Assembly (NCBI RefSeq): GCF_030845195.1
Contig: NZ_CP132543.1
Location: 1,753,501-1,817,500 of the forward strand
Reading direction: 5' to 3'
DNA: 64,000 bases
DNA from: Sanyastnella coralliicola
GTDB lineage: Bacteria; Bacteroidota; Bacteroidia; Flavobacteriales_D; Sanyastnellaceae
Of this stretch, positions 671 through 61,665 are shown one piece after another; the stretch's first letter is position 1; the number at the start of each line of letters is the position of its first letter. The notes beneath the pieces are model-generated. The model was not told where the DNA came from, searched no databases, and saw nothing but the letters and a program-made list of their open reading frames with translations. Made by a program: the position numbers and the translations under genes.

Positions 671-1252
671 ATGAAAAATAAAGCTTCTGAAATAACGCTC
701 GATAATGTTGCTCAATTCAGTGTTCCTCTTGAATCCCACCCTCTTAGATGGAAATTTGAAGATGAGTCCGGACATATTTCCGAGGAGTTTAGTGATCAAA
801 TAATTGCATTAAACTCTGAGGCTGCCAAGTTTATGTGGCAATTCGAAGGCTCCCAGCTACAACTTGGGAATATCCCTAAGATGGCGCATCATTACAAGAA
901 GATTTCACAGCTCAACTGTGCAAGTGCTAGCAATACGGAAGTAAAAAAATGGTTATTCAATCTTGGGATACCTTTTGACCAGAAAGTATTCTGGATTGAT
1001 CAACCGCAATGTGGGTTTATCTTAACGTGGAAAATGGTCATCAAATTTTCTGATGACATATTCTTTGCGGAAGATGTTGTCATTTGGGATCGGACTCTAA
1101 ACTGGTGCTTGAATTATTTCCACCATGACTTATTCTGCTTTGGCAAAGATCGCATTCACAACTCCGAGGTGAGAGCGCAAGAAATGAAGAAGACCAAAGA
1201 CATGATCAACGATATGATCAGAAAGAATCAGGAAAGTCAAAACAACAAATAA
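671..1252 (+). CDS. Hypothetical protein, 193 aa
   Basis: I do not recognise a family. The protein is soluble-looking, with no signal peptide or membrane segment, rich in Trp and aromatic residues in its second half (WLFNLG, VFWIDQPQ, VIWDRTLNW) and with a charged Lys-rich C-terminal helix. It starts 11 bp after the stop of the serine hydrolase gene with no promoter box in between, which suggests the same transcript. It is followed directly by the first 27-bp repeat array. The open frame length and the ATG right after the upstream stop support it as a real gene; function unknown. Confidence 0.7.
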   Translation: MKNKASEITLDNVAQFSVPLESHPLRWKFEDESGHISEEFSDQIIALNSEAAKFMWQFEGSQLQLGNIPKMAHHYKKISQLNCASASNTEVKKWLFNLGIPFDQKVFWIDQPQCGFILTWKMVIKFSDDIFFAEDVVIWDRTLNWCLNYFHHDLFCFGKDRIHNSEVRAQEMKKTKDMINDMIRKNQESQNNK

Positions 1253-1297
1253 TAGAGAGTGCCCATTTAAGAATTCATAATAAAAACCGCATTCGTC

Positions 1298-1459
1298 ATT
1301 GTGAACTTATAATTCAAGATGACCATTGTGAACACGGAATTCAAAAACACAATTGTGAACACACATTCCGAATGAACCATTGTGAACACGGAATTCAAAA
1401 ACACGATTGTGAACACGGAATCCAAAAATACGATTGTGAACAGAGTAATCTGAAATACG
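1298..1459 (+). repeat. 27-bp minisatellite, array 1 (6 units)
   Basis: Six units in perfect 27-bp register begin at 1298, 1325, 1352, 1379, 1406 and 1433, each starting ATTGTGAAC. Differences between units are substitutions only. Because 27 is divisible by three, one frame stays open and would read as 9-residue repeats of the form [ND]-C-E-x-x-x-x-K-[HY]. There are no spacers between units, so this is not a CRISPR array. Confidence 0.9.
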
Positions 1460-1633
1460 GAAGTGAACGGGAGAAGCGTATTAGTTCGTGGTTCGTGGTT
1501 CGTGGTTCGTGGTTCGTGGTCTTTAGTTATCATTTATAGTTTATCGATTTTCGTCTTCAAACGTCTATATATAAACTGAGTGGTGAACACAGGAGAGATT
1601 GATCTATCTCAACGCGGATATATCCAAGAACTA
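1379..1633 (+). repeat. Long direct repeat, copy 1 (partner 2940-3200)
   Basis: About 255 bp nearly identical to 2940-3200: the last three 27-bp units, a GTTCGTG array (5 copies here, 6 in the partner) and a conserved downstream block ending near CCAAGAAC. The copy-number difference in the heptamer points to slippage after duplication. Confidence 0.9.
1484..1518 (+). repeat. (GTTCGTG)5 heptamer tandem repeat
   Basis: Five head-to-tail copies of GTTCGTG. The reverse complement of this heptamer family (CACGAAC) is scattered at 2764-2812, 3380-3420, 4225-4252 and 8004-8036. Confidence 0.95.
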
Positions 1634-1686
1634 ATGACTAAGAACTAAAGACCAAGACCAAACACCACGCCCCCTACATCCCCCAA

Positions 1687-1756
1687 ACCACCACATTCGT
1701 CGAATTCCGAGTGAACAATTTTATCCCCTCCGTGGCCTCCCCTATCTTGTAGTTAA
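1687..1756 (+). repeat. Promoter-bearing direct repeat, copy 1 (partner 3432-3502)
   Basis: 70 bp that recur almost unchanged at 3432-3502, directly upstream of two unrelated genes. It ends in CCCTATCTTGTAGTTAAA, which contains a TAnnTTG promoter box, so the repeat appears to supply the promoter. Confidence 0.85.
1743..1750 (+). promoter_or_regulatory. Putative -7 box TATCTTGT
   Basis: TATCTTGT fits the Bacteroidota -7 consensus TAnnTTTG with one change and lies 30 nt before the ATG at 1781, inside the duplicated promoter block. Confidence 0.5.
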
Positions 1757-1780
1757 ACATTGAATTTGTCTTTGATCTAA

Positions 1781-2761
1781 ATGACCTGTCCAGCAAAAGA
1801 AATACTGTTTGGTGTTGCCATTAGTGATGCACTTGGCGTGCCTTATGAGTTTCTGTCTCGGGAACAAATGAATCAAGACCCGGCGCGGGACGTGACCGGC
1901 TACGGAACGCATAATCAGCCGCCAGGAACTTGGTCAGACGATACTTCTTTAACCCTGTGCTTAGCTGAATCTCTTTTGGACGACTATTCTTTGATTACTG
2001 TCGCTGAGAAGTTTATTCAGTGGAAGAACGAAGCTTATTGGTCAGCCAGAGGAAGTGTCTTCGATATCGGGTTGACTACTTCAAAAGCCATTTCTCGATT
2101 AGAAGAAATCATCGATAACAGAGCTTTTGGTAAGCTCGAGTCATTGAAAGACAGTGCTGAAGAACAAGACAATGGGAATGGAGCATTGATGCGGATCTTG
2201 CCTCTAATAATGGAGATTCAAGGGCAAAACATCACGGAGCAATTCGCTATAGTTTGGAATAATGCCGCGTTGACTCATCGGCACATACGTTCAGCCATGT
2301 GCTGCATGATCTATCTGAAGTTTGCAGAGTATCTGATTCTAGGCATTGACAGGGCTGAATCATATTCTAGAACCCAAAGAGACATTATTGGCCTGTGGGA
2401 AGAGATCAATTTTCCAGAATGTGAAAAACAGCATTTCAAAAGAATCATTCAAAACGACATCTCTTCATTTCCCCGAAACACGATTAAATCAGGTGGATAT
2501 GTTATCGAAAGTCTCGAAGCGAGCTTGTGGTGCTTATTGAATTCAATCTCTTTTGAGAAGTCAGTTTTAGAAGCCATCAATTTGGGTGATGACACTGACA
2601 CCACCGGAGCTATCACAGGTGGAATCGCTGCATTGCACTTTGGATATGATGCTCTCCCCGACTATTGGGTAGCGTCTTTAGCCCGTATGGAAGACATCGA
2701 AAATCTCAGCGACAAACTGAATGAGAAATATGCTTCGCATGAATCTATAACCAACAACTAA
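1781..2761 (+). CDS. ADP-ribosylglycohydrolase family protein (DraG-like)
   Basis: 326 residues of the ADP-ribosylglycohydrolase family (PF03747), which removes ADP-ribose from proteins or hydrolyses O-acetyl-ADP-ribose and similar compounds using two Mg ions. Visible hallmarks are the N-terminal G-x-A-x-x-D-ALG segment (GVAISDALGVPYEF), the metal-site motif WSDDTSLTL near residue 51, GNGALMR in the middle, LTHRHIRS, and the second metal motif GDDTDTTGAITGGIAAL near residue 269. Length is typical. No signal peptide, so cytosolic. It sits alone between two copies of the same long leader repeat, with its own promoter inside the repeat. The substrate is not predictable; no dinitrogenase or ADP-ribosyltransferase is nearby. 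Confidence 0.93.
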   Translation: MTCPAKEILFGVAISDALGVPYEFLSREQMNQDPARDVTGYGTHNQPPGTWSDDTSLTLCLAESLLDDYSLITVAEKFIQWKNEAYWSARGSVFDIGLTTSKAISRLEEIIDNRAFGKLESLKDSAEEQDNGNGALMRILPLIMEIQGQNITEQFAIVWNNAALTHRHIRSAMCCMIYLKFAEYLILGIDRAESYSRTQRDIIGLWEEINFPECEKQHFKRIIQNDISSFPRNTIKSGGYVIESLEASLWCLLNSISFEKSVLEAINLGDDTDTTGAITGGIAALHFGYDALPDYWVASLARMEDIENLSDKLNEKYASHESITNN

Positions 2762-2831
2762 ATACCAAAGACCACGCACTACGAACCACGCACTACGAAC
2801 CACGCACCACAAACCATCTCACTGAAAACCC

Positions 2832-3020
2832 TTTGTGAACGCAAAATTCAAAAACACAATTGTGAAATGAGATCCGCGAAATGCAATTGTGAAACCAGAA
2901 CCACCAAATACAATTGTGAACAAGCAAATCCAAAATGCAATTGTGAACACGGAATTCAGAAACACGATTGTGAACACGGAATCCAAAAATACGATTGTGA
3001 ACAGAGTAATCTGAAATACG
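2832..3020 (+). repeat. 27-bp minisatellite, array 2 (7 units)
   Basis: Units begin at 2832, 2859, 2886, 2913, 2940, 2967 and 2994 in exact 27-bp register. The first four units are diverged from array 1, the last three match it. An ATG at 2867 opens a 75-codon frame across it, encoding repeats such as NCEHGIQKH. Whether it is translated is unknown. Confidence 0.9.
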
Positions 3021-3200
3021 GAAGTGAACGGGAGAAGCGTATTAGTTCGTGGTTCGTGGTTCGTGGTTCGTGGTTCGTGGTTCGTGGTCTTTAGTTATCG
3101 ATTATAGTTTATCGATTTTCGTCTTCAAACGTCTATATATAAACTGAGTGGTGAACACAGGAGAGATTGATCTCTTTGAACGCGGAAATCTCCAAGAACC
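2940..3200 (+). repeat. Long direct repeat, copy 2 (partner 1379-1633)
   Basis: Near-identical to 1379-1633 with one extra GTTCGTG unit. The two copies bracket the ADP-ribosylglycohydrolase gene in direct orientation, so homologous recombination between them would delete that gene. Confidence 0.9.
3045..3086 (+). repeat. (GTTCGTG)6 heptamer tandem repeat
   Basis: Six head-to-tail copies, one more than in the partner array at 1484-1518. Confidence 0.95.
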
Positions 3201-3278
3201 AATGACTAATGACCAAAGACTAATGTCTAAAACCAACGAACTGATGCTCTCCTACATCGGGCTCTTTGTCTAAATACA

Positions 3279-3323
3279 GGTGCATGAATCCCGAATAACG
3301 GGACAGGTGCACCGCTAAAGGAC
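3279..3323. repeat. REP-like palindrome, GGTGCA...TGCACC family, copy 1
   Basis: Outer arms GGTGCA/TGCACC enclose an inner TCCCG-AATAA-CGGGA hairpin and are followed by CGCTAAAGGA. A second copy is at 7861-7906. The shared suffix CCGCTAAAGGA also follows the hairpins at 8768 and 8949. Confidence 0.75.
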
Positions 3324-3431
3324 CAAGGACAATAGTACTAAGGACTAAGAACTAAAAACCAAGTACTTAAGACTAAAAACGAACCAAAAACCACGAACCA
3401 CGCACTACGAACCACGCACTTCATCCCATGT

Positions 3432-3502
3432 ACCACCGCATTCGTCGAATTCCGAGTGAACAGTTTTATCCCCTCCATGGGCTCCCCTATCTTGTAGTTA
3501 AA
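3432..3502 (+). repeat. Promoter-bearing direct repeat, copy 2 (partner 1687-1756)
   Basis: 71 bp matching 1687-1756 with a few substitutions, ending in the same CTATCTTGTAGTTAAA promoter-like segment, placed just upstream of the gene at 3529. Confidence 0.85.
3488..3495 (+). promoter_or_regulatory. Putative -7 box TATCTTGT
   Basis: Same box as at 1743, in the second copy of the promoter block, 33 nt before the ATG at 3529. Confidence 0.5.
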
Positions 3503-3528
3503 GCACTTAACACAGAAAGTATTTGCCA

Positions 3529-3846
3529 ATGTCTTGGTGGAAAAAACAGCCTATAGAGCAAGACAATCCTGAGAAACTAAATTGGGGACCAGTGAATCCT
3601 GATCTCTTTAAAGATGGAGCGTGTATTCATATCATGAACTGCGATCTGCAGGACACTCAAAAAAGGACTAGAACGATCAATTTTGCATTAGATAAGTTCA
3701 AGCACTTCGCTGAGCACCTTCCTAATGAAACAAAGCAGATATTCACTTTTGACATCCGAGGACAGCTGCTCAGTTCAACTGATATTCAAGCTATGAAAGA
3801 GAAGGTGGAACAGATCCCGAATATCAATTTTGAGTTTGAAGCATAA
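3529..3846 (+). CDS. Hypothetical protein, 105 aa, first gene of a coupled pair
   Basis: The ATG at 3529 (MSWWKKQPIEQ) is preferred over a TTG two codons upstream. The protein has no signal peptide or membrane segment. Its second half, KQIFTFDIRGQLLSSTDI, looks like a compact alpha/beta domain, but I cannot assign a family. The stop overlaps the start of the next gene in TAATG (3844-3848), so translation is probably coupled. The arrangement of two small, overlapping, unknown genes behind a duplicated mobile-looking leader recalls effector/immunity or toxin/antitoxin pairs, but nothing in the sequence proves that. Confidence 0.7.
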   Translation: MSWWKKQPIEQDNPEKLNWGPVNPDLFKDGACIHIMNCDLQDTQKRTRTINFALDKFKHFAEHLPNETKQIFTFDIRGQLLSSTDIQAMKEKVEQIPNINFEFEA

Positions 3847-4133
3847 TGGCATTTCACATTGAAATATCAAGAGCGGGAGCTGTCAACTATAATGAGCTAC
3901 TTCAATTGTGCTCTAAACTTAATAGAGAGCATCTTACTATTTTCCCGTTGTGCGGAGATCGAAAGGGAATTGGACTAGCCATAAGCATTCATTGCGACAT
4001 AGAAGAACTATGGCCCAAGCTTGAAGATTTAATAAGGGTGACGATAAAGAAAGATTTCGGAGTACATGAGCTATATAATGGCACTGAGCTTTCTGAGGTG
4101 AACCTTCCAAAACTCAAAGAAATGCTCATCTAG
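3846..4133 (+). CDS. Hypothetical protein, 95 aa, second gene of a coupled pair
   Basis: The ATG shares a base with the upstream TAA, a strong sign of translational coupling. The sequence is soluble, with no secretion signal, alternating beta/helix character (FHIEISRAGAVNY, GIGLAISIHCDIEELWPKLEDLI) and a short acidic/leucine-rich C-terminus. No family recognised. Its job is probably tied to the preceding protein, for instance as a binding partner. Confidence 0.68.
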   Translation: MAFHIEISRAGAVNYNELLQLCSKLNREHLTIFPLCGDRKGIGLAISIHCDIEELWPKLEDLIRVTIKKDFGVHELYNGTELSEVNLPKLKEMLI

Positions 4134-7714: not shown

Positions 7715-7770
7715 GTTAGGCGTTAGGCTTTAGGCTTTAGGCTTTAGGCTTTAGGCTTTAGGCGTTAGCT
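7715..7770 (+). repeat. (G/T)TTAGGC heptamer array
   Basis: Eight consecutive heptamers: GTTAGGC twice, TTTAGGC five times, GTTAGCT once. The same heptamer family recurs at 10585-10606, 10774-10803, 55376-55390 and 62627-62655. Confidence 0.95.
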
Positions 7771-7906: not shown

Positions 7907-8037
7907 TTCTCAGGAGGATTCCAGTCTAATGAGTTTTGTCATATGCACCGCTAAAAGCCTCGTTTTTCATTCCACATTCCACATTCCACATTCCACATTC
8001 AACCCAACGAACCACGAACCACGAACTACGAACCAAA

Positions 8038-8570: not shown

Positions 8571-9204
8571 ATCAAAGCTCTTTTGAAGTAGACGGTGGAC
8601 GGTGGACAGTGGACTGAAGCGAATCCCAATATCCGCCTCAGGCGGACTAATCATGCTAACCCCGGCGTCCGGCATCCGGCATCCGAATCTTGAAACACTT
8701 CGCCATTTCGCCATTTCGCCATTTAGCCATTTCGCCATTTAGCCATTTCGCCATTCCCTAACAATAGGCGCAAGAATGCGCCGCTAAAGAACCGGGACTC
8801 TACTTATCAATCCTTTAACCGTTTTCCTATTGCGGTGAACGGAAATAACCGAATCATGCTATCCGCCGAAGGCGGGCTAATCATGCTAACCCCCGGCGTC
8901 CGGCATCCGGCGTCCGTATTCCTAAACATTCCGCCATTCCCTAAAAATAGGCGCAAGAATGCGCCGCTAAAGGACCGGGACTCTACTTATCAGTACTTTG
9001 ACCGTTTACCTAGTGCGGTAAACGGAAATAACCTAACCATGCTATCCGCCGCAGGCGGGCTAATCATGCTAGCCCCGGCGTCCGGCGTCCGGCGTCCGTA
9101 TTCTAAACATTTCGCCATTTCGCCTTTTAGCCTTTTCGCCCTTTCACCACATTAACATTTCGCCCTTTCGCCCTTTCGCCCTTTCGCCCTTCAACATCCC
9201 CACC

Positions 9205-49506: not shown

Positions 49507-49640
49507 TTTAGGCTTAGGGCCTATGGCTTAAGGCTTAGGTATATTTCACTCCTTTTACTCTATAGATATATATTTACAATCTTCAAGAACCATAACCTTA
49601 AGCCATAAGCCATAAGCCATAAGCCTTATGCCTTATGCCT
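49507..49640. repeat. Inverted heptamer repeats (GGCTTAG / AAGCCAT)
   Basis: TTAGGCTTAGGGCCTATGGC and AAGGCTTAGG (49507-49540) face CCTTAAGCCATAAGCCATAA, then GCCATAAGCCTTATGCC (49590-49640), so the two blocks can pair. Three tandem CATAAGC units are clear. The same words occur at 55503-55535. Confidence 0.8.
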
Positions 49641-49654
49641 TCCACACACCTACG

Positions 49655-61375: not shown

Positions 61376-61665
61376 ACGGTGGACGGTAGACGCTAGACGG
61401 TAGACGGTAGACGGTGGACTGATATTTTACTTGGTACCCGTCCGAGCCTGTTTCTATTCAGAATACTGAAAGTCTTATTCAATTCGGAGTCCCCTCTGTC
61501 CACGGTCCACAGTCCACAGTCCACCCAAAAAGAACATTCACCCCCTCTTCCCCCTCATTCGTGGCTTTGAAAAATGTTCCCATCGAATTGTGGACAAGCT
61601 TAACGTTATTTCTTGGTTATTCCTGAAATCGTTTTCTAACTTCGATACAATCGAACCTTTGGATT
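61376..61665. repeat. Spacer with inverted heptamer repeats
   Basis: Starts with ACGGTGGACGGTAGACGCTA-type heptamers (61376-61421; GGTGGAC, GGTAGAC) and contains the reverse complement TCCACGGTCCACAGTCCAC (61498-61526), so the two blocks can pair. Ends with the TAACTTCG box at 61637. No gene seen. Confidence 0.8.
61637..61644 (+). promoter_or_regulatory. Putative -7 box TAACTTCG
   Basis: TAnnTTyG match, 21 nt before the ATG at 61666. Confidence 0.45.

What the first reader, a model, noticed from the sequence alone, without database searches (positions are those of the whole stretch)
1298..4133. Unrelated genes behind the same duplicated promoter-bearing leader
Two consecutive units share the layout: 27-bp minisatellite, GTTCGTG array, conserved block, variable middle, and a 70-bp block with a -7 box, followed by an ADP-ribosylglycohydrolase gene or by a coupled pair of unknown genes. 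The repeated parts match closely while the genes do not. This resembles gene cassettes spread by recombination at repeats, with direct repeats (1379-1633 and 2940-3200) flanking the first cassette. No integrase was found, and the palindromes do not look like attC sites.
Basis: seen in the sequence. Interest (0 to 1): 0.6.

Follow-up and report, generated by a model that had tools for sequence, protein, structure and literature searches.

The report
Repeat anchors bordering exchangeable genes
Two neighbouring gene units in this marine bacterium sit behind a copied repeat that turns out to be one of about ten scattered "anchors" in the chromosome, and small accessory genes come and go next to several of these anchors although no known cassette-moving enzyme was found beside them.

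Summary
In detail: two units share a 27-bp array, GTTCGTG heptads, a conserved block and a 70-bp block, but carry unrelated genes. The 70-bp block occurs only here, so that part is a local duplication; the heptads are common repeats.

The leader also holds something larger. A 23-nt core, TATATATARACTGAGTGGTGAAC, occurs 11 times at ten places in this genome, 5 times in one congener, and in none of 112 other family genomes. Each own core lies near one or two arrays of TTGTGAAC at mostly 27-bp spacing. Of 17 core copies 13 are identical, while flanks differ.

Between the two species, genes behind the array differ at 2 of 3 orthologous anchors, and one anchor is absent at the same locus. Six of 16 homology breaks lie within 40 bp of an array edge. 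Chosen cargo is AT-rich; it includes Pycsar-DRT8 defence genes and an ADP-ribosylglycohydrolase, but mostly unknown ORFs.

Best reading: dispersed, partly mobile repeat anchors bordering accessory-gene turnover, probably by recombination; no recombinase identified. The cassette idea is partly supported.

The parts
671..1252 (+). 193-aa ORF upstream of array 1, no family match, G+C 0.39; possible earlier cargo
1297..1442 (+). 27-bp array 1 (TTGTGAAC units; 7 units by stepping)
1484..1520 (+). GTTCGTG heptads; common in the genome, not specific to the units
1521..1640 (+). conserved block, 112/120 identical to 3089-3208
1566..1588 (+). 23-nt core TATATATAAACTGAGTGGTGAAC, copy 1 of 2 here; 11 copies in the genome, two of them with G for A at position 9
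1689..1765 (+). 70-bp block, copy 1; found only here and at 3432-3508
1781..2761 (+). ADP-ribosylglycohydrolase gene (PF03747); cargo of unit 1
2833..3003 (+). 27-bp array 2 (8 units by stepping)
3045..3088 (+). GTTCGTG heptads, copy 2
3089..3208 (+). conserved block, copy 2
3134..3156 (+). 23-nt core, copy 2
3432..3508 (+). 70-bp block, copy 2
3523..3846 (+). 107-aa ORF, no family above cut-off; cargo of unit 2, G+C 0.40
3846..4133 (+). 95-aa ORF overlapping the previous one by one base; cargo of unit 2

Best explanation
The window holds a locally duplicated copy of a genus-specific, dispersed non-coding 'anchor'. An anchor is one or two arrays of 5-10 TTGTGAAC units, mostly 27 bp apart, plus a near-invariant 23-nt core. 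In 7 of 11 own copies there is a second motif (GTTCACCAGATCTTAGACGA) in inverted sense 66-121 bp away. SHOWN: anchors are dispersed; the family-A anchor sits in several different contexts with edges at the arrays; genes behind the array differ between two species at 2 of 3 orthologous anchors; one anchor is present or absent at one locus. INFERRED: anchors act as borders for gain and loss of short, AT-rich accessory genes. The exchange is most likely by recombination between the repeated anchor DNA, resident or incoming, rather than by fixed-point site-specific recombination, because breaks lie near array edges but not at one nucleotide. The constant unit spacing and near-invariant core imply a bound protein, not identified.
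For: Core: 11 in own genome, 5 in G048 (one with a mismatch), 0 in 112 other family genomes, reversed-pattern control 0. Arrays: same 2 of 114 genomes, control 0. 19 own arrays, 146 units, 111 of 127 spacings exactly 27 bp (the stepping allowed 26-28). Core columns 1.5-2.0 bits, flanks mostly below 1, up to 1.4 just downstream (17 copies). L052 vs G048 L131: flanks 94-95% and anchor 91% identical, but 683 bp and one ORF vs 3522 bp and four ORFs behind the array. L047 vs L127: 112 vs 2929 bp. L133 anchor absent in own genome, where the 94% identical flank ends about 25 bp before the first unit. Family-A right edge: 48-58 of 60 inside; outside 0.42-0.56 for the five non-orthologous pairs (30/71 to 35/62), 51/60 for orthologous L047/L127, shuffled mean 0.455 from one pair. 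6 of 16 breakpoints within 40 bp of an array edge; random placement reached this in 74 of 20000. Cargo G+C mean 0.404 (42 ORFs) vs 0.467 (18 flank ORFs), p 2e-6.
Against: At the orthologous anchor L048/L132 the DNA is continuous (84.7% over 6 kb) through core, gene, array and the gene behind it; only the core side differs. 10 of 16 breakpoints are not at arrays, rows of one pair are not independent, and ranges and edges were set by me. Cargo and flank genes were picked by me. L047 and L051 share sequence beyond the left array, so the unit is not always array to array. Multi-gene cargo (L050, L131) has no arrays between genes. The window core has the opposite orientation relative to its array and genes. 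G048 is an 80-contig assembly, so anchors missing there prove little. No recombination event was observed directly.
Confidence: 0.5

Rival explanations
1. Regulatory leader: the arrays are operator clusters for a common regulator and travel with, or are kept in front of, the accessory genes they control.
For: By inspection of the maps (ORFs under 80 aa skipped), in 15 of 18 judged own-genome arrays (of 19; one ambiguous) the next gene in the array's direction is co-directional; strict unit spacing; HTH genes lie beside some anchors.
Against: Array-to-gene distance varies from about 60 to over 500 bp; at L047, L048 and L051 an array faces a convergent gene; it does not by itself explain homology breaks at array edges or presence/absence of an anchor.
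Confidence: 0.22
2. Non-autonomous transposable element: the arrays are multi-site ends bound by a transposase supplied in trans.
For: Family A occupies what appear, from DNA matches, to be four distinct contexts in the two genomes, with sharp edges; arrays face outward on both sides at L053, L054 and (right array degenerate, read by eye) L128; an inverted unit (up to one mismatch) lies 23-25 nt beyond the last unit in 5 of 9 left arrays, two of these paralogous; 6 of 19 arrays have one within 80 bp on the 3' side and 3 of 19 on the 5' side, against 4.5% per background 80-mer.
Against: In most anchors the two arrays are direct, not inverted; no Y2 transposase (control silent) and no resolvase in own genome; no transposase family among the ORFs between arrays that were scanned; no target duplication established.
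Confidence: 0.18
3. Neutral reading: local duplication in the window, and elsewhere old minisatellites that persist in hypervariable islands without a role.
For: 70-bp block confined to two places; many low-complexity repeats in this genome; 10 of 16 breakpoints away from arrays.
Against: A 23-nt core in 17 copies, 13 identical and four with one change each; TTGTGAA kept at 0.89-0.99 per base while other bases fall to 0.27-0.77, apart from one A at 0.89 (unit choice required 5 of 8 matches, which inflates this).
Confidence: 0.08
4. Integron or CALIN (integron cassettes without integrase).
For: Short, co-oriented, unrelated, AT-rich genes.
Against: No attC-like site in 12 regions by a simple scan (no positive control); the five tyrosine recombinase matches of the own genome lie 19 kb or more from anchors, and the four whose sequence I read look, by eye, like XerC/D or phage/ICE types; no attC-like repeat seen by eye between genes of L050 and L131.
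Confidence: 0.02

Closest known systems
rAID, recombinase-associated acquired interbacterial defence islands of Bacteroidales (PMC12247911, passages read)
   Same: Short co-oriented, AT-rich genes with conserved non-coding motifs nearby, in Bacteroidota.
   Different: No tyrosine recombinase beside the genes in the own genome; the conserved motif is a 27-bp array plus core at the island edge, not between every gene; clear immunity families are rare among the cargo, which includes a phage-defence operon.
Integrons and CALINs
   Same: Single-gene or few-gene cassettes of unrelated function next to a conserved non-coding site.
   Different: No attC-like sites found (scan without positive control), no integron-type integrase identified, breakpoints not at one fixed nucleotide.
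Tn7-like or Mu-like transposon ends with several transposase-binding sites (recalled, not tested)
   Same: Arrays of repeated sites at both edges of a mobile unit.
   Different: More sites, 27-bp phasing, mostly direct orientation, no transposase family seen inside.
DNA uptake sequences (recalled)
   Same: A short repeated motif linked with gene exchange.
   Different: Motif not enriched outside anchors in the DNA examined.

Membership tests
rAID | tyrosine recombinase upstream of the gene array | tested here: not met
   Five PF00589 matches in own genome; the nearest lies about 19 kb from an anchor. Not checked anchor by anchor in G048
[quoted passage not shown]
   L050: six ORFs of 105-173 aa; G048 L131: four ORFs, 153, 213, 225 and 381 aa; not at every anchor
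rAID | orphan immunity proteins | tested here: inconclusive
   Weak DUF2247 below its cut-off at L050; Imm52 beside the anchor-lacking site L148; most cargo scanned has no family
rAID | conserved intergenic sequence motifs | tested here: inconclusive
   Anchors conserved, but no shared motif seen between the genes of L050 or L131 (by eye)
rAID | gene G+C below 41% | tested here: inconclusive
   24 of 42 chosen cargo ORFs below 0.41, mean 0.404
Integron/CALIN | integron-type tyrosine integrase | tested here: inconclusive
   Five PF00589 matches, none near an anchor; four of five read, none judged integron-type by eye; no IntI-specific model was run
Integron/CALIN | attC sites | tested here: inconclusive
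   0 hits in 12 regions, shuffled mean 0.2, no positive control
Serine-recombinase element | resolvase/invertase gene in the genome | tested here: not met
   0 in own genome and G047, 1 in G048, control rang in 10 of 14
IS91/Helitron-like | Y2 transposase | tested here: inconclusive
   0 of 3 genomes, but control rang in 0 of 14
DNA uptake sequence | over-representation across the genome | tested here: not met
   TTGTGAAC 2 in the window outside 1290-3050 (about 3.2 expected), 0 in 75,509 flank bases of nine own loci; whole genome not counted
Plasmid- or phage-borne repeat | copies on plasmid or phage records | tested here: not met
   no match for one query in each collection; viral contigs 0 exact matches for the core

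The most novel reading that the evidence does not exclude
A new integrase-less cassette system: mobile docking elements bounded by 27-bp site arrays, recognised through TTGTGAAC units and a 23-nt core by a dedicated, still unknown protein, into which bacteria of this genus take defence and other accessory genes.
Probability: 0.25. Interest if true: 0.8.

Novelty: new variant of a known kind. Interest (0 to 1): 0.58.

Why it matters
Accessory immunity and phage-defence genes are exchanged quickly, but outside integrons, integrative elements and rAID islands the sites that guide this exchange are poorly known (general knowledge). A sequence-defined anchor with a near-invariant core gives a handle: it predicts where new accessory genes will lie and offers a short DNA bait for finding the protein involved.

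Tried and rejected
Considered and set aside: an integron; a DNA uptake signal (motif not enriched outside anchors in the DNA counted); a known RNA family (none in the window segment or in 8 of the 10 own anchor loci, L048 and L056 not given); a plasmid or phage repeat; a Y2 transposase (control silent); a serine recombinase. A protein common to the anchors: (L047-L056, L076-L079) real genes are shared only within the L047/L051 type and orthologous pairs, apart from a few matches of neighbouring genes (for example 43% over 56 aa between L048 and L055); the rest is translated array DNA or repeat proteins.

Led nowhere: single-sequence models of the 107- and 95-aa proteins were poor (mean pLDDT 58 and 53), so no fold search was run. 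Four stretches (L057-L060) were taken for heptad or block matches; none has a core and they were not studied further. The outgroup G047 has no core or array; its shikimate kinase gene lies beside other genes, but synteny is too rearranged to show an empty site. The window's DUF4349 protein had no match in G047 or G048, without a positive control. Paper searches (listings only) showed no description of this repeat; only an open-licence library was searched. The original rAID paper was not held; rAID features come from passages of PMC12247911.
Full report
What is in the window. Unit 1 (1297-2761) and unit 2 (2833-4133) share a 27-bp array, GTTCGTG heptads, a conserved block and a 70-bp block. 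Identity falls away from the array end: 104/105 there, 112/120 in the conserved block, 69/80 in the 70-bp block. The genes differ: an ADP-ribosylglycohydrolase (PF03747; the Tri1 model is far below its cut-off) and two overlapping short ORFs without a family above cut-off. The window is at 1,753,501-1,817,500 of a 4,097,636-base single-contig genome.

What is confined and what is dispersed. The 70-bp block has only the two window copies. The heptads occur at many unrelated places. The conserved block contains a 23-nt core that occurs 11 times in the genome at ten places; nine copies are identical and two have G for A at position 9. It is present 5 times in G048 (one with one mismatch), and absent from G047 and the other 111 family genomes searched (2 of 114 genomes). 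A sixth G048 copy has a one-base deletion. In the large genome collection the pattern was found only in one Flavobacteriales MAG, ALOHA_ZT_13 (which may leave out the own genome); its four contigs have the positions and lengths of four G048 contigs. The three-unit array pattern is confined to the same 2 of 114 genomes, with 68 and 26 matches (only part of these is listed).

Anatomy of an anchor. Nineteen arrays in the own genome hold 146 units; 111 of 127 spacings are 27 bp, 14 are 26 and 2 are 28, the only values the stepping allowed. Outside the window, in the direction of the adjacent genes, the usual order is array, heptads or a purine/pyrimidine tract, core in reverse, sometimes one or two genes, second array. 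L048 has one array. At L053, L054 and L128 the arrays face outward. In the window the core lies the other way round. A second motif matches at 15 or more of 20 bases in 7 of 11 own copies; L048, L049 and the two window copies reach only 10-11 (no shuffled control). An inverted unit follows the left array at 23-25 nt in 5 of 9 cases, two of which are paralogues.

What lies beside anchors. Pycsar effector and cyclase followed by a DRT8-type reverse transcriptase (L054); a WYL gene and a specificity-subunit/ATPase protein (L053); glyoxalase-like genes (L054, L055); DUF6869; DUF2947 and DUF2247, both below cut-off; many short lipoprotein-like or unknown ORFs (by eye). Across L047-L056 and L076-L079 no cargo family is shared between anchors beyond the L047/L051 type and orthologous pairs.

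Turnover between species. Three orthologous anchors have comparable flanks. L052 and G048 L131 share flanks at 94-95% and the anchor at 91%, but the content behind the array is 683 bp with one ORF against 3522 bp with four, and the other side also differs, 383 against 2284 bp. L047 and L127 differ by 112 against 2929 bp behind the left array. L048 and L132 speak against the rule: 84.7% identity runs for 6 kb through core, gene, array and the gene behind; only the core side differs. L053 and L130 share the anchor (80% over 484 bp), but the G048 contig is too short to judge. At the G048 C30 locus the 94% identical left flank ends about 25 bp before the first unit; the own genome has no array or core in the 17 kb fetched there but a 218-aa ORF. 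Both species keep a related giant gene to the right, with a Tox-REase-5 domain in one and an RHS repeat in the other, and an Imm52-type gene is beside it in the own genome. Where G048 carries the window's right flank, an IS21-type gene pair lies upstream near the contig end. The window's cargo had no DNA match in G048 or G047 (40 of 227 G048 candidates scored).

Statistics and their limits. Six of 16 breakpoints lie within 40 bp of an array edge; random placement in ranges I chose reached six or more in 74 of 20000 trials. Breakpoints from one comparison are not independent, and ten are elsewhere. Breaks range from inside the last unit to some 38 nt after it (by eye), which argues against fixed-point site-specific recombination. 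Family-A right edges are sharp: 48-58 of 60 inside, 0.42-0.56 outside for non-orthologous pairs against a shuffled mean of 0.455, and 51/60 for orthologous L047/L127. At the left edge L047 and L051 stay identical beyond the array, while pairs with L127 and L128 drop to 29/65-32/66. Cargo is AT-rich, 0.404 against 0.467, Mann-Whitney p 2e-6, on sets picked by me.

Mechanism. Shown: dispersed anchors, a near-invariant core, different genes behind 2 of 3 orthologous anchors, anchor presence/absence at one locus. Inferred: recombination between anchors or with incoming DNA as the route, and a protein bound to array and core. I could not identify that protein. The five tyrosine recombinase matches in the own genome are not near anchors; the four read look, by eye, like XerC/D or phage/ICE types.

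Comparison. The closest described kind is the rAID island, defined in PMC12247911 (passages) by a tyrosine recombinase, co-oriented short genes and conserved intergenic motifs. The recombinase is missing beside these loci in the own genome, so they are not filed as rAID; they may play a similar ecological role. Integron membership is not supported.

Noticed in passing
L054 5989-8826: Pycsar effector, Pycsar cyclase and a DRT8-type reverse transcriptase lie in a row behind an array.
   Followed up: partly
L133 6447-13988 and L148 6732-14441: Related giant genes at the same locus in two species: RHS repeat detected in one, Tox-REase-5 domain near the end of the other, Imm52 beside the latter.
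   Followed up: partly
L047 4834-5082, L051 5653-5931, L127 2436-2714: A small HTH protein near the core is 98-100% identical over 72-92 aa in three copies, its tail differs in L047; a candidate array-binding protein, untested.
   Followed up: no
L128 3602-7979: Type IV pilus or secretion genes (minor pilin-like with a weak ComP_DUS match, weak prepilin peptidase, T2SSE ATPase, secretin) follow an outward-facing array in G048.
   Followed up: partly
window 7716-7768, 7968-8035, 49590-49641, 61376-61419: Heptad repeats of several different sequences at several places in the window.
   Followed up: no
window 8744-9119: A 183-bp tandem repeat, 2.1 copies, 91% matches.
   Followed up: no
L126 50-1681: IS21-type transposase end (Mu-transpos_C_2) and IstB in G048 upstream of the window's right-flank genes.
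   Followed up: partly
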